The notes under the pieces: model-generated
Told to the model about the DNA's origin: nothing
What the model saw: the letters and a program-made list of their open reading frames with translations, nothing else
Databases searched by the model: none
Source of the DNA: Chloroflexota bacterium
Lineage (GTDB): Bacteria; Chloroflexota; Anaerolineae; Anaerolineales; UBA4823
NCBI GenBank assembly: GCA_029265355.1
Contig: JAJUJL010000001.1
Coordinates: forward strand, 372,001-436,000
Reading direction: 5' to 3'
DNA length: 64,000 nt
In this document: positions 4,864-14,675 of the stretch, piece by piece
How the letters are laid out: the number at the start of each line of letters is the position of its first letter
Numbering within the stretch: the first letter of the stretch is position 1
Made by a program: the position numbers and the translations under genes

Positions 4864-5244
4864 TTACACAGAGATCGGAGCGTCGCCAGGCTTCCAGTCG
4901 ACGTTCGTCTTATCCGATTCGTCATACGGCGACTTGGCGAAGATCGCTTTCCACGGGACCTCGCCTTTGTTGATCAGGTAGTGCGGCGTGCGCGGGGGAA
5001 CATGGCATAGGTCGCCTACGTGCAGCTCCAGTACGCCATCAGGCGTGTGCAACTCGACGCTGCCTTCCAGGGTGTAAAAATTTTCTTCGATCGCAGAGTG
5101 GTAGTGAGTTTGGAAGTCTTCTCCGGGCATCAAAACCACCAATCCGAAATCGGAGCGCGGCCCGCGCAGCAGGTACTTAGGGCCAGAGATATTGTTAAAT
5201 CGGTATTTGACTTCGTTCTCGTTAATCTTGAACAATTTCATCAT
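4864..5244 (-). CDS. Small cupin protein at the end of the lsr operon
   Basis: A single-domain cupin of about 126 residues. Motif 1 is PGEDFQTHYHSAIEENFYTLEG (two His and Glu as metal ligands, about residues 43-64) and motif 2 is VGDLCHVPPRTPHYL, with a further His. Start: ATG at 5244 (or the next ATG at 5241), preceded by TAGGAG at 5249-5254, which overlaps the lsrK stop codon; the GTG at 5259 has no ribosome site. It is the last gene of the AI-2 operon and translationally linked to lsrK. Its substrate is unknown. Because LsrG, the enzyme that normally acts on phospho-AI-2 before LsrF, is missing here, a role as sugar-phosphate isomerase is conceivable but is only inference. Confidence 0.82.
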   Translation of the reverse strand: MMKLFKINENEVKYRFNNISGPKYLLRGPRSDFGLVVLMPGEDFQTHYHSAIEENFYTLEGSVELHTPDGVLELHVGDLCHVPPRTPHYLINKGEVPWKAIFAKSPYDESDKTNVDWKPGDAPISV

Positions 5245-5251
5245 TGAGCTC

Positions 5252-6808
5252 CTATTCACCCGGAGCGCGCCACAGGGAGTGCGTGATGCCCTGGTCCGCC
5301 AGGGAGAGTTGCGGCGGGTACGCTGCCAGCCAGTGGGCGTAAAGGTCTTCGTAAACCGCCTGGTTCTTCACATCTGGCTCATAGACTTTTTCGCTTTTCA
5401 CGAGCTCACTGGCGGCCGACTCGAAATCTTTGTACCAGCCAATGCCCACACCCGCGCACATCGCTCCGCCGAGCGCGGTAGCCTCTTTGACCACCCGGGT
5501 GTGCACAGGCACCTGCAACACGTCAGCCAGGATCTGGCACCACAGCGGGCCTTTGGATGCGCCGCTGGCAAAAATGACGTATTCAGGATACTCACCGGTC
5601 ACCTGCTGGATGCGCAGAAGATTGGCGCGCGTGACCACAGCCGCATTTTCTTGCAACGCCCTGAACATCGCTGGTCGTGAGCAGGCTTGCGGATCGAGGC
5701 TCAGATTCAGGAAGGATGGCGCAGCGTGGCGCCAGTGGCTGTAATCCATGGCATCTGAGAAAATCGGCAGGATGCCATGCGAGCCAGCGGGGACGTCGCG
5801 AGCCATGTCTTCCAGCACGGCGTAGGGATCCTGTCCGCTTGCCAAAGCCTGGGCTTTGATGTCCGGGCAGATAGCATCGCGGAACCAGCGCACAGCCATC
5901 CCCGGGAAAAACACAATCGTTTCGGCTTGCCACAGACCAGGCACGGCGTGGAAGTCCATGCGGATGCGACCGGTCGGGTCAGATAGAGGACGATCTAAAT
6001 TGACTTCCTGCTGCCAGAACGTGCCGCCAAATACCGCCGCTTGCCCAGCACGAACGGCGCCCACGCCGATTGTGCCGAGCTGTGCATCTCGACCTCCCAT
6101 CACAATGGGCGTCCCAGCCCGCAAGCCGGTCTCGAGCGCTGCCTGGGGCGAGACTTCTCCGATCAGGTCGCCGCCCTCGTGTACTGGCGTGCTCAATATC
6201 TGGCTGCGGAAACCGCAGGCATGCGCCAACTCGAGGTCCAGCTTGCGGGTAGCCAGGTTGAACAGGCCAGCAGTACCTCCGTTGGAGGGATCGATCACCA
6301 CGGGCGCGCCCAGGCGGTGCGATACCCAGTCGCTCAACATACCCACCTTCGCCGCTTGTTCGTAGATCTCAGGTGCATGGTCTTTGAGCCACAGGATGCG
6401 CGGCGCAGCACCCAGGGCAAAAGTTTGCCCTGTGCGCAAGTATAATCGGTGCTCTAAATCGGGATCTCGCTGGCGCAGCGCCTTCACCTGTTCGATAGCA
6501 CGGGCATCAACGTTGGCGCAAGCCCACAGCTCGCGGTCATTGGCATCGTACAGCACAAAGCCCTCGCCCATGCTCGTGGCGCTGACTGCGGCCACGTGAG
6601 CATCCGGCACCTGACGCAGGACTTCGCGGATGCAATTAACAAGCAAGCGCCAGTTAGCTTCGCGGTCAAAGTTCATCGAGCCAGGCACACCAGGCTCAGC
6701 GGGATGTGTCCACTCACGGCCGGCAGCGGCGAGCTGCCTGCCCTGCTCATCAAACAGAACCGCCCGTCCGCTACCGGTGCCCGCATCCAAAGCCAGTAGA
6801 TGTTTCAT
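5252..6808 (-). CDS. lsrK: Autoinducer-2 kinase LsrK
   Basis: FGGY-family kinase that phosphorylates internalised AI-2 (linear DPD) at C5, trapping it in the cytoplasm and making the LsrR inducer. At 518 residues it is close to E. coli LsrK (530) and carries stretches recalled as shared with it: LALDAGTGS at the N-terminus, VPGSM, WACANVDARA, SDW, DPSN, GGTFWQQ, MRWFRDA-like VRWFRDA, APSFLNLS and the terminal TSLWKAPG-like HSLWRAPGE. The nucleotide-binding site shows GASKGPLWCQILADV and KEATALG. Start ATG 6808 has AAGGAG 5 nt upstream. It follows lsrB after an 86-nt gap with a strong hairpin. Confidence 0.95.
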   Translation of the reverse strand: MKHLLALDAGTGSGRAVLFDEQGRQLAAAGREWTHPAEPGVPGSMNFDREANWRLLVNCIREVLRQVPDAHVAAVSATSMGEGFVLYDANDRELWACANVDARAIEQVKALRQRDPDLEHRLYLRTGQTFALGAAPRILWLKDHAPEIYEQAAKVGMLSDWVSHRLGAPVVIDPSNGGTAGLFNLATRKLDLELAHACGFRSQILSTPVHEGGDLIGEVSPQAALETGLRAGTPIVMGGRDAQLGTIGVGAVRAGQAAVFGGTFWQQEVNLDRPLSDPTGRIRMDFHAVPGLWQAETIVFFPGMAVRWFRDAICPDIKAQALASGQDPYAVLEDMARDVPAGSHGILPIFSDAMDYSHWRHAAPSFLNLSLDPQACSRPAMFRALQENAAVVTRANLLRIQQVTGEYPEYVIFASGASKGPLWCQILADVLQVPVHTRVVKEATALGGAMCAGVGIGWYKDFESAASELVKSEKVYEPDVKNQAVYEDLYAHWLAAYPPQLSLADQGITHSLWRAPGE

Positions 6809-6894: not shown

Positions 6895-7974
6895 TTAGAA
6901 ATCGTAGTTGTCGATATTGTCGATGGTGAAGATCACACGCTCAGGCAGCAGGATGATGCCGTTATTCTCGGCTTCGTAGGTGTAGCCCTGCACGCTGTTG
7001 GGCGAAACCTCCACCGTACCGATACCCGGCACTTCGATTTTATCACCGACCTTGAAGGTCTTACCCATCACCAGCTCGTTCGCCATAAACACGGCAAGCT
7101 TACCCTGGATCACCACATCCCACAAACCAAACTGCTTCACCGTGCCGCTCTTGACATACTGGCGCATGACGTTTGGCGTTGAAAAGCCAACAATGATCAC
7201 TTTGCCAGAAATGCCCAAATTTTCAGCCGCCTGTGCGGTGCCGGGCAGAGCGTTGGCATCGGGGCAAATGATCGCATCCAGATCTGGGTAGGTCTGGAAG
7301 ATATCGGTAGGCACCTGAACGGCTTTTTGAGCGTCTTCACCCGAGAACTGCGTGGTGACGATTTCCCAGTTGGGATACTCCTCCGCGATGATTTTCTTGG
7401 CGACCTCTACCCACTGGTTCTGGTCGGTCACGGTGGGGCTGGAGTAGTGGAAAGCCACTTTCTTGGGACCTTCTTTGCCACCGTTGGGCATCTGGCTGGC
7501 AGCCATCTCCACCAGCATGCGTCCGAGCTGATCGGGTGTGCCCTGGTTGATGTAATACGAGCGGCATTCCGGGTTGACATCGGAGTCCCAGGTGAGCACC
7601 TTAACGCCTTTTTCCATAGCGCGCTTAAGCGATTCGCACAGGCCATCGGGCGAGAGAGACGAGATGGCAATGGCGTGGTAGCCCTGGTTGACGAAGTTGT
7701 TGATGTACTGGATCTGATCGCTTACACTGGGTTTCTGCGAGCCATCGTACTTCACGTTGATGCCCAGTTGCTTACCCATCTCCACCGCACCTTTACCGCC
7801 GGACTCGAAAAAGCCAACACCCGTGAGTTTGGGGATGAAGGCGATTTTAACGTCTTTGGGCTCAGGCACCTTTGCCGTATTGCTGGAAGCCCCACCTGAG
7901 CAGGCCGTCAACAACATGGCAGAGACGACGAGCAAGAAAAACAGACTGGTTGCAGAAGAACGAATGCCTTTCAT
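6895..7974 (-). CDS. lsrB: AI-2-binding lipoprotein LsrB
   Basis: Periplasmic-binding-protein-type receptor of the AI-2 importer. It begins with a lipoprotein signal (LLTAC, Cys25), so it is membrane-anchored, as expected where there is no periplasm. Long stretches agree with Salmonella/E. coli LsrB, e.g. [38 protein letters not shown] and LLPERVIF. The six residues known to contact AI-2 in Salmonella LsrB (K35, D116, D166, Q167, P220, A222) map to K50, D131, D185, Q186, P239 and A241, all conserved. Start ATG 7974 has GGAGG 8 nt upstream. At 359 residues it has normal length plus the anchor. Confidence 0.97.
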
Positions 7975-8056: not shown

Positions 8057-9085
8057 TTACCTATTGATCGGTGATACGCCTCCTTTCGATTCTTCGCTAG
8101 CGCGTAGCGCCTTGCGATTCACGCGCGTTTGATTGAGCGCAGCACTGCCCAGTTTGGATGCCACGATGATGACCAACATGCTCCCAATGACCACCTGCGA
8201 TACATCATTCGTCACGCCTATTGCCAGAAGACCCTGCTTGAGAAATCCAACCACAAGGCTGGCAATCAGCGTGCCCGGGATGGTACCCGAGCCGCCCAGG
8301 TTGCTTGTGCCGCCCAATACTACCGCCGTGATGATCGGTAACAGCGCCTCACCACCCAGGTCGGAGCGAGCCGAAGTAAAGTAGGAGGTGAGCATCACGC
8401 CAGCCAACGCCGCACCAAACCCGCTAAGAGCATACGCGCCAATAATCACCCGCTGCACCGGTATGCCGCTGAAGCGGGCCGCTCGCAAATTCACGCCGAT
8501 CAGGTACAGCGAGCGGCCAAAGCGCGTACGGGTCAGGGTTATGTGTAAGATCAACGCAAACGCCAGTACGATCAGCAGTGGATAGGGTACTATGCCGATC
8601 GAGCCGTGCGAGATGTTATTGAAGCTGGTGGGCAGGCCGGAAATGCCCTCGTAGCTTTCCGCCCCTTGCATCCCAGCAATTCCGGTTGCCAGACCGGAGT
8701 ATAGGAACAAGGTGCCAAGCGTAATTACCAGTGGTTGGATATCGGAGTAAGCGACCAGCACGCCGTTGAACATGCCTGCCAGAACGCCAACCAACAACGC
8801 CAGCCCCATAGCCACGAATACATTGATACCAGACAGCCAGGACACGCCCAGCACCACCGACGACAGGCCCATCATCGAGGCGACTGAAATATCGATGCCG
8901 CCGGTGATCATCACCAGGGTGAGCGGCAACGCAGCCAGCATGATATGGGTGAAGTCATTGGTGGAATAAAACAGATTATCCAGGTTCAGGAACGAAGGCG
9001 TGATAGCGCCAAACAGCAGCACCTCAGCGATCAGCAAACCCACCAGCGCCGATTCCCAGTTTCGGAAAAGTTTGAGGATTTTCAC
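8057..9085 (-). CDS. lsrD: AI-2 importer permease LsrD
   Basis: Membrane permease of the sugar-type ABC family (BPD_transp_2), one half of the AI-2 channel. It matches LsrD rather than LsrC: ESALVGLLIAEVLLFGAI, the GGIDIS loop, VITLGTLFLYSG, YEGI, SYFTSARSDLG and AVVLGG. Start: GTG at 9085, which overlaps the lsrC stop in GTGA and has GGAGG 5 nt upstream; an ATG at 9202 lies inside lsrC and is unlikely. That gives 342 residues against 330 in E. coli. Eight or more hydrophobic segments are visible. There is an 82-nt gap to lsrB. Confidence 0.95.
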   Translation of the reverse strand: MKILKLFRNWESALVGLLIAEVLLFGAITPSFLNLDNLFYSTNDFTHIMLAALPLTLVMITGGIDISVASMMGLSSVVLGVSWLSGINVFVAMGLALLVGVLAGMFNGVLVAYSDIQPLVITLGTLFLYSGLATGIAGMQGAESYEGISGLPTSFNNISHGSIGIVPYPLLIVLAFALILHITLTRTRFGRSLYLIGVNLRAARFSGIPVQRVIIGAYALSGFGAALAGVMLTSYFTSARSDLGGEALLPIITAVVLGGTSNLGGSGTIPGTLIASLVVGFLKQGLLAIGVTNDVSQVVIGSMLVIIVASKLGSAALNQTRVNRKALRASEESKGGVSPINR

Positions 9086-10107
9086 AAGGCCTCCTTCGAT
9101 GCCGCATCGATCGCCACTTGCACACTTCGGTGCAAGCGCATCTGGGCGCGTGCCCTTCGCTGGCGCTGGTCCAAAGCCACCCGGATGCGGTAGTCGACCC
9201 ATAGCACCACCAGGAGAATTCCACCGGCTATAGCGTTGTTCCAGAATGCGGGCACCTTCAGGTAAATCAAGACGCTGTCTATAACAGTCAAGAATACGCC
9301 GCCCACCAACGCAGAGAAGGGCGTACCGACGCCGCCGGCCAGGTTGATTCCACCCAAAACACCGGCAGCGATGGCGCGCATCTCCAGGCCATCACCGGTG
9401 GACATGGGTACAAAACCGATCTGGGCGACAAAGATCACCGAAGCCAGCCCGGCAAATAACCCAGCCAGGCTATAGGCGGTGAAGTGCGTCAGACGCACCG
9501 GAATGCCCATCAAGTAGGCGCCATTTTCATTGTCTCCAACCGCATAAAAATAGCGCGCCGTGCGCACTTGCTTCAACAAAATATAGACCATCACCGTCAG
9601 CGCAAGCGTGAACCAGGCAAACATTGAAACACCCAGCAACTTTGCGCCTGCCATAGACTTAATCGACTGCGGGATGGTTTCAATCCATGAACCCTCGGTG
9701 ATAATCAGCATGAGGCCGCGGAAAGCGCCCAAAGAGCCGAGCGTCATGATAATTGGCGGCACTCGCAGAAAGGTCACGCCTGCGCCATTGATCATCCCAG
9801 CCAATAATCCGGTGAGAAGCGCCAGCAGGATCGCCAGCGGCAACGATACACCCGCGTTCAGCGCGGTCCCTAAAATCACTGCGCTAATACCGGTGATAGC
9901 ACCCACCGAGACATCGATGCCGCGCGTCAAGATGACAAACATCTCACCAATAGCAATCAGGATGAGTATCAGGCTGCTATCGAGCATGTTTTTCAGCGAG
10001 GCTGGTTGCAAAAAAGCAGGATTGATCGCCCCGATGACCGCCATCATCCCAAGCAAGATGAACAATACCAACAATTCACGGTTACGTAGAATACGATTCC
10101 AGTTCAT
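9082..10107 (-). CDS. lsrC: AI-2 importer permease LsrC
   Basis: Second permease of the AI-2 channel. It follows E. coli LsrC along its length: LTRGIDVSVGAITG, a WIE..P segment, the YAVGDNENGA loop, AQIGFVP, GLEMRAIAAGVLGGI, and TVIDSVLIYLKVPAFWNN near the end. At 341 residues it matches the family. Start ATG 10107 lies in an ATGA overlap with the upstream lsrR-lsrA fusion gene and has GGAG upstream, so fusion, lsrC and lsrD are translationally chained. The C-terminal tail is long and basic (RQRRARAQMRLHR), as in LsrC. Confidence 0.96.
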   Translation of the reverse strand: MNWNRILRNRELLVLFILLGMMAVIGAINPAFLQPASLKNMLDSSLILILIAIGEMFVILTRGIDVSVGAITGISAVILGTALNAGVSLPLAILLALLTGLLAGMINGAGVTFLRVPPIIMTLGSLGAFRGLMLIITEGSWIETIPQSIKSMAGAKLLGVSMFAWFTLALTVMVYILLKQVRTARYFYAVGDNENGAYLMGIPVRLTHFTAYSLAGLFAGLASVIFVAQIGFVPMSTGDGLEMRAIAAGVLGGINLAGGVGTPFSALVGGVFLTVIDSVLIYLKVPAFWNNAIAGGILLVVLWVDYRIRVALDQRQRRARAQMRLHRSVQVAIDAASKEAL

Positions 10108-12587
10108 ACACCACTCCGCACACCAAACGCTGAGGCTGTAATCCGTTCGATCTGGCATTGGGCGCGCGGCAGCTCTTCTACGATCTGACCGTGATACATC
10201 ACCAACACGCGATCGCTGAGCTGGATGACCTCTTCCAGGTCAGAGGAGATCAGCAGAATGCCCACCCCTTGTTCGGTTAGCTTACGGATCAGGTGATAGA
10301 CATCCTGCCGTGCTTTGGCGTCAACGCCGCGCGTGGGCTCATCTAAAATCACAACCTTAGGGTCGCCTGCCAGGCACTTGGAGAGCACTACTTTTTGTTG
10401 GTTGCCGCCGGAGAGCGTACGGGCTTGCTGCGATAGGCTGTTGATTTTGATACGCAACTGGTCAACAAAGCGGGCGCCTATCCTGGCTTCTTCGCTCTGA
10501 GAAAGTAGAACCTTCCCTAGCCGGGGCAGGATGGAAGCAGTGGTGGTGTACAGGTTGGGCAGCTCCAGGAAAATCCCGTGAGCATGGCGGTCTTCAGGAA
10601 GGTACACCAGCCCCAGCTCAGCACAGCGCCGTGGGCTGCGGCGATCAGCAACCTGACCTGCGATCATCACCGTACCACGCGCCGCGTGCTCCAAACCCAG
10701 AATGGCATGCGCTAGCTCAGTGCGGCCCGCTCCAACCACACCAGCCAACCCCACGACTTCTCCAGCCCTCACACTCAGGTTCAGGTTTTGAAAGGCGTCT
10801 CCGCTCAGGCCTGAAATCTCCAGCACCACCTCACCAAAAATCGCCGAGGGATGCTCATGCCCAGTTTCGCCGTTGTTGCTGCTCGTTTCGGGCAGCATGG
10901 CGCGAATCAGATCGCGTGAGGTGAGCGTGCTGGTAGGTGCAGACAACACCAGGTTACCGTCGCGCAAGACGCTGATCCTCTCGGAAAGCGTCAAAATCTC
11001 GTTCAGACGGTGAGAGATAAAGAATATGCCAATGCCCTTCTCAGCCAGCTTGCGGATAATCGCGAACAACGAATCAACTTCGCGGAAAGTCAAGGTAGAG
11101 GTGGGCTCGTCAAAGATCAAGACCCTTGCATTGCGCAGCAACCCGCGGATGATCTCCAAAAGTTGCTGGTTAGCGATGCTCAGCATACCAGCTTCAGCGC
11201 TTAAGTCGCCTTCAAAGCCCAGATCACGCGCCAGCTCGACAATTCGCGAGCGCGCCTCTTGCTGCTGCAAGCCTGCACCCAGCAGAATGTTTTCTTCGAC
11301 CGTCAGATGAGGGAATATCTGAGGTTCCTGGGGCACCAGGTAAATTCCCATGGCATGCGCATCCGATGGCCCATGGATGGCGATTGGCGAGCCGTTCATT
11401 TCGACTGAGCCAGCTTCAGCAGTGTAAACGCCGGACAGAATCTTCATCAATGTGGATTTGCCGGACCCATTGCCCCCCAGCAGGGCATGGATCTCACCGG
11501 GCAGCAAATTCAGGTTCACACCGCGCAACACAGGCACACCGTCAAAGACCTTCCAGATGCCGCGCATGGCGATCAAGGGGGGCGGCGTGGCTTGAGTCTT
11601 AATCTCAGAAGAAGACACCTGAGTGAGGCCGGTGGTGTGCAGCGCCAGGACGGCTCGGGCCGCCGCTTCATCGGTCACCAGCACATTGACATAACCCTTC
11701 CTTAATGCAGCCAATATCGATCGGGCTTTCTCAGCGCCGCCAGCCACCCCCATCACGGTAGGTATACGTGACAACGTGTCCAGGGTAATACCGATGACTC
11801 GTCGATTGATGGGCAGGTCAAGCCACTCACCCTGAGCATTGTAGTGCTGTGCACAGATATCCCCAACTGCGCCGGACAGGCGGATCTGCTCAGCTTCTGC
11901 TGGCGATACGTAACCGGTGCGGAGCAGGCTGTACAGTTCCGGGTGTGTTGAGCCGATGCCCACCAGGGCGATGCTGAGTTTGGAGGCTCGCGCCAGGGTA
12001 TCGCGGATGGTGCGCTCCTGCAGCAGGGCGTTGCGCCCGGTTTCCGATTCAACAATCAAGGGAGCGTGCAAAAAGCGCACGCCGCAGTTCAAGCGGTTAG
12101 CCAACAGGCGGGCCAAGATTGGGCCATCCGTGGCTACCGGTTCATTGCCAGTAGCGCCGATGAGTTGCACCACTTCCACGTCGGGCAGGTTCATCGGTGG
12201 CATTGCCATGATCATCTGGTACAAAGCGCTGCCCCATGAGATGCCGATGCTGTCCTGCGCGCCCAGCACCTCAGAGAGGTAATCCGCTGCCAGATGCCCG
12301 ATTCCTTCGAGCATTTGCTCAGAGGAGGTCGCCTCAGCAGATAGCACGCGCACTTGTTTGAGGTGAAAAGTCTCCTTGAGCTCCGCTTCCAACTCGGGGT
12401 TGGTCTGCCAGGGACGGTTAATCGTTACCTGGACCACGCCCATTGACCGGGCGCGCTCAAGAAGCTGTTTCACTTCTGCCTCGGAGAGGCCGCGCTGCGA
12501 CGCAATGTCTTGTACGGAGTTGGCGCGATGATAATAATCCGAAGCAATCTCCGCCAGAAAAGCTCGTTGATCATGGTTTTCCGCCAT
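10104..12587 (-). CDS. LsrR-LsrA fusion: AI-2-phosphate sensor joined to the AI-2 importer ATPase
   Basis: An 827-residue protein in one uninterrupted frame. Residues 1-315 are an entire SorC/LsrR-type regulator: a winged helix-turn-helix (about 10-58) and a sugar-phosphate effector domain (about 62-315, with GISWGSAL, QLIGATG, HAPLIVE, GIGST, GVAGG). A linker (316-338) leads to a complete LsrA double ATPase. ATPase 1: Walker A GGNGSGKST 371-379, degenerate signature LSIANQQ from 469, Walker B FDEP 492-495. ATPase 2: the degenerate Walker A usual in sugar importers (GVVGAGRTE), LSGGNQQK 725-732, LDEP 748-751. The start ATG has GGAG 5 nt upstream; no ribosome site precedes the Met at 341, so a separate LsrA product looks unlikely. 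The sensor half aligns gaplessly with the stand-alone LsrR at about half identity, but its recognition helix (35-44) has Glu, Ala and Gln where LsrR has Arg and Ser, so DNA binding may be lost. Role inferred: an importer ATPase gated by phospho-AI-2. Confidence 0.93.
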   Translation of the reverse strand: MAENHDQRAFLAEIASDYYHRANSVQDIASQRGLSEAEVKQLLERARSMGVVQVTINRPWQTNPELEAELKETFHLKQVRVLSAEATSSEQMLEGIGHLAADYLSEVLGAQDSIGISWGSALYQMIMAMPPMNLPDVEVVQLIGATGNEPVATDGPILARLLANRLNCGVRFLHAPLIVESETGRNALLQERTIRDTLARASKLSIALVGIGSTHPELYSLLRTGYVSPAEAEQIRLSGAVGDICAQHYNAQGEWLDLPINRRVIGITLDTLSRIPTVMGVAGGAEKARSILAALRKGYVNVLVTDEAAARAVLALHTTGLTQVSSSEIKTQATPPPLIAMRGIWKVFDGVPVLRGVNLNLLPGEIHALLGGNGSGKSTLMKILSGVYTAEAGSVEMNGSPIAIHGPSDAHAMGIYLVPQEPQIFPHLTVEENILLGAGLQQQEARSRIVELARDLGFEGDLSAEAGMLSIANQQLLEIIRGLLRNARVLIFDEPTSTLTFREVDSLFAIIRKLAEKGIGIFFISHRLNEILTLSERISVLRDGNLVLSAPTSTLTSRDLIRAMLPETSSNNGETGHEHPSAIFGEVVLEISGLSGDAFQNLNLSVRAGEVVGLAGVVGAGRTELAHAILGLEHAARGTVMIAGQVADRRSPRRCAELGLVYLPEDRHAHGIFLELPNLYTTTASILPRLGKVLLSQSEEARIGARFVDQLRIKINSLSQQARTLSGGNQQKVVLSKCLAGDPKVVILDEPTRGVDAKARQDVYHLIRKLTEQGVGILLISSDLEEVIQLSDRVLVMYHGQIVEELPRAQCQIERITASAFGVRSGV

Positions 12588-12626: not shown

Positions 12627-13493
12627 TTAATGAACCGAGCTAATGGCCACATCCTCAGCCGTAGCGACGTAGAGCTCTTCGCGGCGAGTGCTGTCGTTTT
12701 GCAACCCTTCAACCAGCTCTAAGGCCTGGTCAACCGAAGCCTTTTCATGGACGATGGCGCGCACTCCCTGGAGAATCGCGGCAGGGTAGTCTGATTGCCA
12801 GATATTGCGACCCATATCAACACCAATCGCACCGGCCTGGATCGAACGATAGGTCAGCTCCAATACATCGCGATAGGTGGCTAACTTGGGTCCACCCGCG
12901 ACCACAATGGGCACAGGCGTCTTTGCCACCACCTCTTCAAATCCATCACAGTAATAGGTCTTCACGATATCTGCGCCAAATTCGGCGGCGATACGCGAGG
13001 CCAGCGCCAAATAGCGCTTCTCGACCTTTTCTTTCATCTTCTTACCTACTGCAGTCACCCCCAACACCGGAAGATTGTACTGAGCAGCATCATTGATGGC
13101 AGTCGAAAGGTTTAGCAAAGTCTGGTGCTGATGCTCGGCGCCGATGTAAATGGATACCGCTATTGCTGAGGCGTTCAAACGGATCGCTTCAGCCGCTGTC
13201 AGGATCAAGGATTCGTTGTCGATGTCGGGATCCAGCACGGTATTGCCGCCCGAAGCACGCAGCACCCATCCCACCCCACCAAGCGTGGCCGGTACAGAGG
13301 TGGTCAGGATCCCTGGCGAAAGCATGAGTGAGTCGATATACGGCAGCAGCGGCCGGATTGCCCGAGCGGGGATTTCCATGCCGTGCGTTGGACCCATGAA
13401 ATACCCATGGTCAATCGCTAGCATAACCGTATGCCCGTCTGATTTGATGATTTGATGAAGTCGATTTTGTTTACCCCAGCTCATTATTGCCAT
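12627..13493 (-). CDS. lsrF: 3-hydroxy-5-phosphonooxypentane-2,4-dione thiolase LsrF
   Basis: Class I aldolase-fold enzyme that cleaves the phospho-AI-2 derivative P-HPD with CoA to acetyl-CoA and dihydroxyacetone phosphate, ending the signal. The family pattern is clear: TVMLAIDHGYFMGPT, VLRASG, YIGAEHQHQ, the Schiff-base lysine in IVKTYY (Lys178), VPIVVAGG and GVDMGRNIWQSD. Start ATG 13493 has GGAAGGA 6 nt upstream; the in-frame ATG further up lacks a site. It gives 288 residues (E. coli 291). Here lsrF is the first gene of the operon, unlike E. coli, where it follows lsrB. Confidence 0.95.
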   Translation of the reverse strand: MAIMSWGKQNRLHQIIKSDGHTVMLAIDHGYFMGPTHGMEIPARAIRPLLPYIDSLMLSPGILTTSVPATLGGVGWVLRASGGNTVLDPDIDNESLILTAAEAIRLNASAIAVSIYIGAEHQHQTLLNLSTAINDAAQYNLPVLGVTAVGKKMKEKVEKRYLALASRIAAEFGADIVKTYYCDGFEEVVAKTPVPIVVAGGPKLATYRDVLELTYRSIQAGAIGVDMGRNIWQSDYPAAILQGVRAIVHEKASVDQALELVEGLQNDSTRREELYVATAEDVAISSVH

Positions 13494-13530
13494 ATGCAAT
13501 CCTTCCATTGATTGACACAATTTGCAATCT

Positions 13531-13639: not shown

Positions 13640-13712
13640 AGTTCGTGTCAGAACATGATATGCTTAAACTTATACGGGTTTCAAAACATAGATGCTCTGG
13701 AAAGAGGGGTTT

Positions 13713-14675
13713 ATGGCGAACGAAAGTTCTCGCTTAGATCACCTGGCCTACGTTGCTTCGTTGTATTACGAGCAGGACAAGAACCAACAAGAGATTGCCG
13801 ATGAACTGGGCATCACTCGCTCGGCTGTATCGCGCTTGCTTACTGAAGCGCGCGCTCGCGGTGTGGTTGAAATCATCGTGCACATGCAATGGCGTACCTC
13901 CACAGAGCTTGAAAATGAAATCAAGGAGCGCTTTGGATTGCGAGCAGCGCGCGTGTTGATTCGAGAACAAAAATCGCACGAGATGATGCTACGCGGTCTG
14001 GGGGAGCTGGGCGCCGATTTCTTCACCAGCGTGTTGAAACCCAACGATATTGTTGGCATATCTTGGGGTACCGCCCTGCACCAAATGGTCAATAGTCTGT
14101 CTCCGGGCAAGCACCATGCCGCTGAAGTTGTGCAATTGATTGGGGGCACAGGCACCGAGCAAGCCTCAGCAGATGGTCCACTCCTGGCGCCATTGCTGGC
14201 CAATAGTCTGGGATGCATCTGCCGCTACCTGCACGCGCCGCTCATCGTAGAAAACGAAGCCACGGTCCAGGCCTTGATGAGCGAGCGTATGATCCGCGAG
14301 ACGCTGGAGCACGGCCAGCAAGCCAACATCGCTTTGGTGGGCATTGGCTCTACCGCCTCAGATCTATACAACCCTTTGCGCCTGGGATATGTCAAGCCAG
14401 ATGAGCTGCATGAATTGCAGAAGGCTGGGGCTGTAGGATTAGTATGCTCGCGTCATTACGACATCTACGGACGCCTGGTGAATATTCCAATCAACCAGCG
14501 CGTAGTTGGCATCAGCCTGGCAGATTTATCACTCATTCCTTACGTGATCGGTATTGCCGGCGGCGTGCGCAAGGCTGAAGCCATCTTGGGGGCCCTGAGA
14601 GGTCATTACATCAATGTGCTGATCACAGACGATACAGCCGCCCGCCGCTTGCTTGAGATGGCGCAATTGCGCTAA
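13713..14675 (+). CDS. lsrR: LsrR, AI-2-responsive transcriptional repressor (SorC family)
   Basis: Cytoplasmic regulator that represses lsr genes and is released by phospho-AI-2. The N-terminal helix-turn-helix (about 12-58) has an intact recognition helix TRSAVSRLL (35-43). The effector domain (about 62-315) carries GISWGTALHQM, QLIGGTGTE, YLHAPLIVE, GIGST and GIAGG. At 320 residues it compares with 317 for E. coli LsrR. Start: ATG 13713 with AGAGGGG just upstream; the ATG at 13692 would add seven residues without a site. It is divergent from the lsr operon, sharing a 219-nt control region with five operators. It is a close paralogue of the N-terminal half of the fusion protein. Confidence 0.94.
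   Translation: MANESSRLDHLAYVASLYYEQDKNQQEIADELGITRSAVSRLLTEARARGVVEIIVHMQWRTSTELENEIKERFGLRAARVLIREQKSHEMMLRGLGELGADFFTSVLKPNDIVGISWGTALHQMVNSLSPGKHHAAEVVQLIGGTGTEQASADGPLLAPLLANSLGCICRYLHAPLIVENEATVQALMSERMIRETLEHGQQANIALVGIGSTASDLYNPLRLGYVKPDELHELQKAGAVGLVCSRHYDIYGRLVNIPINQRVVGISLADLSLIPYVIGIAGGVRKAEAILGALRGHYINVLITDDTAARRLLEMAQLR

What the first reader, a model, noticed from the sequence alone, without database searches (positions are those of the whole stretch)
4864..5244. Cupin protein in the place where LsrG is missing
The usual AI-2 degradation route needs LsrG to convert phospho-DPD before LsrF cleavage. LsrF is present but no LsrG-like ABM-domain gene is found in the operon; the last gene is instead a metal-site cupin coupled to lsrK. 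Cupins include sugar and sugar-phosphate isomerases, so it could be a non-orthologous replacement.
Basis: inference. Interest (0 to 1): 0.58.

Follow-up and report, generated by a model that had tools for sequence, protein, structure and literature searches.

The report
Cupin paired with AI-2 kinase LsrK
A small metal-binding protein sits right behind the kinase that traps the bacterial signal AI-2, also in distant bacteria that lack the usual next enzyme (LsrG), so it may do that enzyme's job; the pairing itself was already in print, and its function is still untested.

Summary
Window 4864-5244 (-) is a complete cupin gene, translationally coupled to lsrK, last in an lsr operon with lsrF but no lsrG. 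The pair is strongly conserved: all 26 cupin-bearing loci among 47 lsrK loci classified have it directly after lsrK (Chloroflexota, Thermaceae, an Atribacteria MAG, Deinococcus, Lacticaseibacillus, Salmonella, an E. coli island). Of the 47, 23 have cupin only, 13 LsrG only, 3 both, 8 neither. In nine alphaproteobacterial loci LsrG occupies the slot the cupin holds elsewhere. None of 16 cupin genomes has an LsrG over the curated cut-off; the window's genome has one distant LsrG-like protein beside an iron alcohol dehydrogenase. This supports a cupin phospho-DPD isomerase. Against a simple swap: Salmonella and an E. coli island carry both genes. The association is not new: PMC3420918 (2012) reported it in Salmonella, Bacillus cereus and Spirochaeta and suggested AI-2-P processing. 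No activity is shown. Most likely: a metal-dependent enzyme acting on phospho-DPD, doing LsrG's isomerisation where LsrG is absent.

The parts
4864..5244 (-). cupin gene (126 aa from the ATG at 5244; 131 aa from the GTG at 5259); metal ligands His52, His54, Glu59, His93 in the 131-aa numbering
5249..5254 (-). lsrK stop codon TAG overlapping the AGGAG ribosome-binding site of the cupin gene: translational coupling (inferred)
   Evidence: read
5252..6808 (-). lsrK, autoinducer-2 kinase (NF008187, 755 bits, cut-off 528)
6895..7974 (-). lsrB, AI-2 binding protein (NF011937, 581 bits, cut-off 384)
8057..9202 (-). lsrD-like permease (best NCBIfam match LsrD 316 bits, below cut-off 500)
9082..10158 (-). 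lsrC-like permease (best NCBIfam match LsrC 335 bits, below cut-off 388)
10104..12587 (-). lsrR-lsrA fusion: SorC/LsrR ligand domain fused to the importer ATPase (LsrA 567 bits, cut-off 586)
12627..13520 (-). lsrF, 3-hydroxy-5-phosphonooxypentane-2,4-dione thiolase (NF006081, 377 bits, cut-off 297)
13692..14675 (+). separate divergent lsrR-type SorC regulator with an intact helix-turn-helix pattern (best NCBIfam match DeoR 257 bits, LsrR 173 bits, both below cut-off)

Best explanation
The protein is a small metal-dependent cupin enzyme of the AI-2 uptake and degradation pathway. AI-2 is imported by LsrACDB and phosphorylated by LsrK to phospho-DPD. The cupin, made in step with LsrK by translational coupling, then acts on phospho-DPD: most likely it moves the carbonyl from C3 to C4 through a metal-held enediolate, giving 3-hydroxy-5-phosphonooxypentane-2,4-dione, the substrate of LsrF, which yields DHAP and acetyl-CoA. 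In operons without LsrG it thus stands in for LsrG. Shown here: the gene, its overlap with the lsrK stop, fold and metal-ligand conservation, strict linkage to lsrK, presence of LsrF and lack of a good LsrG in the same genomes. Inferred: coupling, substrate, reaction, metal, and that it suffices without LsrG.
For: Cupin directly after lsrK on the same strand in all 26 cupin-bearing loci of the 47 classified (16 of them came from a cupin search blind to lsrK). In kinase-first searches, 8 of 8 genomes of the Thermaceae MAGs' phylum with LsrK over cut-off carry it (loci read). LsrF over cut-off in 20 of 21 cupin genomes, the 21st with LsrF split over contig ends. LsrG model NF007791: 0 of 16 cupin genomes over cut-off, 1 of 16 with any match. 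Same-slot exchange: in 9 of 13 LsrG-only loci, all nine alphaproteobacterial, LsrG follows lsrK on the same strand as the cupin does elsewhere. Lacticaseibacillus: full lsr operon with lsrF and cupin, no lsrG in the 20 kb read. Cupin and LsrK distances correlate, r = 0.90, 0 of 5000 permutations reach it, n = 25. H52, H54, E59, H93 and R20 invariant in 25 sequences. Phosphomannose isomerase cupins 7zvm/7zvy are among the best-ranked PDB fold matches.
Against: Salmonella and two E. coli island loci have cupin and lsrG together. The window's genome and one relative have an LsrG-like protein elsewhere. Deinococcus psychrotolerans has lsrK-cupin with no other lsr gene within 10 kb. In the four newly read Thermaceae-phylum loci LsrF is not near the operon. 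The cupin fold does not fix the reaction: dioxygenases, lyases and decarboxylases match as well by sequence. K28 and K109, candidate phosphate ligands, are not invariant. The mirror correlation may only reflect shared ancestry of the hosts or operons.
Confidence: 0.5

Rival explanations
1. The cupin works on AI-2 or phospho-DPD but at a different step from LsrG: for example ring opening or dehydration of DPD before or after LsrK, or conversion of another stereoisomer or hydrate, so that it complements LsrG.
For: Salmonella and E. coli island operons keep both genes, and the cupin always follows lsrK while enteric lsrG follows lsrF. Lacticaseibacillus adds a pyranase (rbsD) behind the cupin, showing that accessory steps occur.
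Against: It does not say what makes the LsrF substrate in the LsrG-less genomes; alphaproteobacteria put LsrG in the cupin's slot.
Confidence: 0.27
2. The isomerase step is done by the distant LsrG-like protein elsewhere in the genome or runs without an enzyme, and the cupin is an accessory.
For: The window's genome has an LsrG-like protein on another contig; it also occurs in G032, G276 and G450.
Against: 15 of 16 cupin genomes have no LsrG-model match at all; the protein is below cut-off, closer to PDB 2omo (107.7 bits) than to LsrG (51 bits), and in three of four genomes lies beside an iron alcohol dehydrogenase.
Confidence: 0.1
3. An oxygen-dependent dioxygenase that destroys the diketone, like acetylacetone- or acireductone-cleaving cupins (recalled).
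For: Quercetin dioxygenase is the best sequence match in the PDB, though only over the generic cupin motif.
Against: Present in an Atribacteria MAG, a group recalled to be anaerobic; LsrF is kept in the same genomes and would lose its substrate.
Confidence: 0.06
4. A non-catalytic binding protein that buffers phospho-AI-2 and so tunes LsrR.
For: The overlap with the lsrK stop would keep binder and product in step.
Against: Four metal-ligand residues are invariant in 25 sequences from distant hosts, which points to catalysis.
Confidence: 0.07

Closest known systems
lsr-associated 'mannose-6-phosphate isomerase' / STM4071 of Salmonella and the B. cereus group (PMC3420918; PMC4804515)
   Same: Cupin directly after lsrK; the Salmonella homologue is 46% identical; the 2012 paper suggests an AI-2-P processing role.
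   Different: Salmonella also has lsrG and an lsrE-like epimerase in the locus; the window's operon has no lsrG and an lsrR-lsrA fusion. That STM4071 is the gene rests on position (STM4072 is lsrK) and was not aligned.
RASTtk 'Cupin domain protein in autoinducer 2 (AI-2)-related operon' (name seen in a table of PMC8876208)
   Same: Named cupin in an AI-2 operon with LsrK and LsrF; that table lists no lsrG.
   Different: Name only; the passages read give no function, and I had no sequence to compare.
LsrG (NF007791, ABM family PF03992; PDB 2gff, 3qmq)
   Same: Proposed reaction and pathway position; in alphaproteobacteria the same slot after lsrK.
   Different: Unrelated family and fold.
Cupin phosphomannose/phosphoglucose isomerases (PDB 7zvm, 7zvy, 1j3p)
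   Same: Cupin fold, sugar-phosphate isomerase chemistry; 7zvm 27% identity over 94 residues, Z 12.0, rmsd 3.4.
   Different: Different substrates; the fold match is shared by many other cupins at similar Z.

Membership tests
lsr-associated cupin family | Cupin_2 domain | tested here: met
   PF07883 57.7 bits, cut-off 27.2
lsr-associated cupin family | directly downstream of lsrK, same strand | tested here: met
lsr-associated cupin family | sequence relation to the Salmonella lsrK-linked cupin | tested here: met
   tblastn E = 3e-23; 45.7% identity over 116 residues
lsr-associated cupin family | intact HxH...E...H metal site | tested here: met
   H52, H54, E59, H93 invariant in 25 sequences; that these bind metal is recalled cupin knowledge
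LsrG, phospho-DPD isomerase | homology to LsrG / ABM family | tested here: not met
   no ABM or LsrG match in Pfam or NCBIfam at E 0.001
LsrG, phospho-DPD isomerase | phospho-DPD isomerase activity (works like) | not testable with these tools
   needs an enzyme assay
Cupin sugar-phosphate isomerases | cupin fold similar to solved isomerases | tested here: inconclusive
   many cupins of other functions score as well; model mean pLDDT 79
DMSP lyase (PF16867) | curated score cut-off | tested here: inconclusive
   30.2 bits against cut-off 27, but Cupin_2 scores far higher and the context is lsr; read as generic cupin similarity

The most novel reading that the evidence does not exclude
A metal-dependent cupin is a second, unrelated phospho-DPD isomerase: it replaces LsrG across lsr operons of Chloroflexota, Thermaceae, an Atribacteria lineage and Lacticaseibacillus, and Salmonella carries both solutions side by side.
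Probability: 0.45. Interest if true: 0.62.

Novelty: new member of a known kind. Interest (0 to 1): 0.43.

Why it matters
If true, the AI-2 degradation pathway has two unrelated isomerases, and lsr operons scored as incomplete because they lack lsrG would be complete. It would also give a function to a Salmonella lsr-locus gene listed as hypothetical. It makes a concrete question testable: what makes the LsrF substrate where LsrG is absent.

Tried and rejected
Genome-wide lsrG as an easy refutation: the only ABM match is a distant LsrG-like protein below the curated cut-off. My own LsrG profile gives it 148.6 bits, but it was in the seed of that profile, so that score is inflated; its relatives in G032, G276 and G450 score 112-124 for the same reason, and the other ABM frames that scored reach at most 35.

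Cupin homologues at low identity: one search found matches in 22 of 61 genomes, but only the window's and two relatives' (67-69% identity) are this family; the rest are at most 36% identical. As a control, none of 27 such loci (L007-L033) shows an AI-2 kinase; three have another FGGY kinase in the locus, best matched by the xylulokinase model, below its cut-off. That listing hid kinase scores under 150 bits.

LsrK-like kinases over the NF008187 cut-off but without LsrACDB nearby: five Chloroflexota loci and two in the phylum of the Atribacteria MAG lack both cupin and LsrG. They are counted as 'neither' together with the broken lsrK of an Enterobacter plasmid (L127): 8 of 47.

Counts: 45 loci plus two. 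From 79 lsrK plasmid records I read 17, chosen by genus, so the 13 LsrG-only loci are not independent (three Sinorhizobium loci, two Klebsiella). The cupin-only class is partly ascertained: 16 loci come from the cupin search. Of the 16, several lie on short contigs, so absence of lsrF or lsrG near them means little; the whole-genome searches are the test. Alignment A1 had one row on the wrong strand and was replaced by A2. No structure coordinates were available for mapping residues.

Literature: searches listed no paper in the held library that tests this cupin's activity or proposes it as an LsrG replacement. The LsrG characterisation paper (PMC3093905) is not held, so LsrG chemistry is recalled. 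Of PMC3420918 I read section 13 and passages; of PMC4804515, PMC11000858 and PMC8876208 passages only.

Full report
WHAT IS THERE. The gene at 4864-5244 (minus strand) is a complete Cupin_2 protein. Its ATG at 5244 follows AGGAG at 5253-5249, which overlaps the lsrK stop codon at 5254-5252 (read), so its translation is very likely coupled to that of LsrK. The operon reads lsrF, a fused lsrR-lsrA, lsrC, lsrD, lsrB, lsrK, cupin, with a second lsrR-type gene diverging upstream. LsrK, LsrB and LsrF pass their NCBIfam cut-offs; LsrA, LsrC and LsrD are best matches below cut-off. No LsrG-like frame lies in the operon.

LSRG IN THE REST OF THE GENOME. One ABM-family match exists in the 98% complete genome. 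It matches the LsrG model at 58.9 bits against a cut-off of 135, is nearer to PDB 2omo (107.7 bits) than to LsrG 2gff (51 bits), and lies beside an iron alcohol dehydrogenase. Similar proteins beside such a dehydrogenase occur in G276 and G450, which lack the cupin next to their LsrK-like kinase, and one without a dehydrogenase match in its 2-kb locus occurs in G032. It is a possible but weak LsrG.

CONSERVATION OF THE PAIR. A genome-collection scan with a three-sequence cupin alignment found 16 loci; tblastn showed lsrK directly upstream in all 16. They include records titled Chloroflexi, Anaerolineae, Caldilineaceae, Thermaceae, Syntrophus and Atribacteria. Kinase-first searches: 7 of 400 Chloroflexota have LsrK over cut-off, two of them with the cupin; 8 of 111 in the phylum of the Thermaceae MAG, all eight with the cupin; 3 of 50 in the phylum of the Atribacteria MAG, one with the cupin; 1 of 395 in the phylum of the Syntrophus-titled MAG, with the cupin. 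In the plasmid collection 8 records match the cupin; seven are Deinococcus, Salmonella and Lacticaseibacillus and the eighth is a weak Streptomyces match. I read three of the seven; all have the cupin after lsrK.

CUPIN VERSUS LSRG. I scanned 45 lsrK loci with profiles for cupin, LsrG, LsrK and LsrF and two more. Cupin only: 23. LsrG only: 13. Both: 3. Neither: 8. All 26 cupins lie on the lsrK strand directly behind it. In nine LsrG-only loci, all alphaproteobacterial, LsrG occupies that slot instead; these loci show no LsrF match and, in the five checked, a class II aldolase in the operon. Whole-genome searches: LsrF over cut-off in 20 of 21 cupin genomes; LsrG over cut-off in 0 of 16, any match in 1 of 16. 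Other ABM proteins occur in many of these genomes (18 of 26 searched, five of the 26 being genomes without the cupin locus) but, apart from the four LsrG-like ones, do not resemble LsrG.

THE COUNTER-EVIDENCE. The Salmonella locus holds lsrG, lsrF, an lsrE-like epimerase and the cupin; the record is labelled plasmid, but tpiA, pfkA and fieF nearby suggest a chromosomal piece. A homologue of the Salmonella cupin at about 70% DNA identity is in 125 of 5426 E. coli genomes. The two I read sit in an lsr operon with lsrG on what looks like a genomic island. So the cupin is not simply an alternative to LsrG. Either both catalyse the same step or the cupin does a neighbouring one.

STRUCTURE. The model (17-sequence alignment, mean pLDDT 79) is a cupin barrel; phosphomannose isomerase cupins are among the closest matches, together with many cupins of other or unknown function. 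H52, H54, E59 and H93, R20, N97 and a GP.YL..GP motif are invariant in 25 sequences from distant hosts. Fold and ligands fit a metal-assisted enediolate isomerase but do not prove it.

LITERATURE. PMC3420918 (section 13) reported in 2012 a novel lsr-associated 'mannose-6-phosphate isomerase', consistently adjacent to lsrK in Salmonella, the B. cereus group and Spirochaeta smaragdinae, in the Salmonella LsrR regulon, with a possible AI-2-P processing role. PMC4804515 lists STM4071 as hypothetical and changing together with lsr genes. PMC8876208 shows the RASTtk name 'Cupin domain protein in autoinducer 2 (AI-2)-related operon' for a Bacillus strain whose table lists no lsrG.

VERDICT. Involvement in AI-2 processing is very likely (about 0.85, judgement). 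The specific reading, isomerisation of phospho-DPD in place of LsrG, is about even. The pathway chemistry of LsrK, LsrG and LsrF used here is recalled, as the primary paper was not available.

Noticed in passing
window 10104-12587 (-); also L037, L038, L046, L042: In five of the 23 LsrA-type frames listed an LsrR/SorC ligand domain is fused in frame to the importer ATPase LsrA, while a separate LsrR-type gene is kept. In four the recognition helix has lost the RS..SRL pattern of the separate LsrR copies; in the fifth (L042) that part is missing. A phospho-AI-2 sensing domain may here gate the importer instead of binding DNA.
   Followed up: partly
genomes G000, G061-G069, G071, G075, G076: None of these 13 cupin genomes has a LuxS match, while all eight of the Thermaceae-phylum cupin genomes do, one as a fragment. 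The window's organism probably consumes AI-2 made by others.
   Followed up: partly
L129, L130: 125 of 5426 E. coli genomes carry a homologue of the Salmonella cupin; in the two loci read it belongs to a full Salmonella-type lsr operon with an lsrE-like epimerase and cupin, near IS and group II intron genes.
   Followed up: partly
L074, L076, L078, L079, L080: Alphaproteobacterial lsr operons have LsrG after lsrK but no LsrF match, and a class II aldolase in the operon, suggesting a different cleavage step.
   Followed up: no
L001, L066, L067: LsrG-like ABM protein next to an iron-containing alcohol dehydrogenase in three Chloroflexota genomes: a separate conserved pair of unknown role.
   Followed up: no
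L061-L065, L132, L135: Kinases over the AI-2 kinase cut-off (41-46% identical to the window LsrK) with no lsr transporter nearby, several near a SorC gene, probably act on another substrate; the NF008187 name may mislead there.
   Followed up: partly
L043:4435-4590: A second, partial copy of the cupin (71% identical to the window cupin over 38 residues) on the same short contig; duplication or assembly artefact.
   Followed up: no
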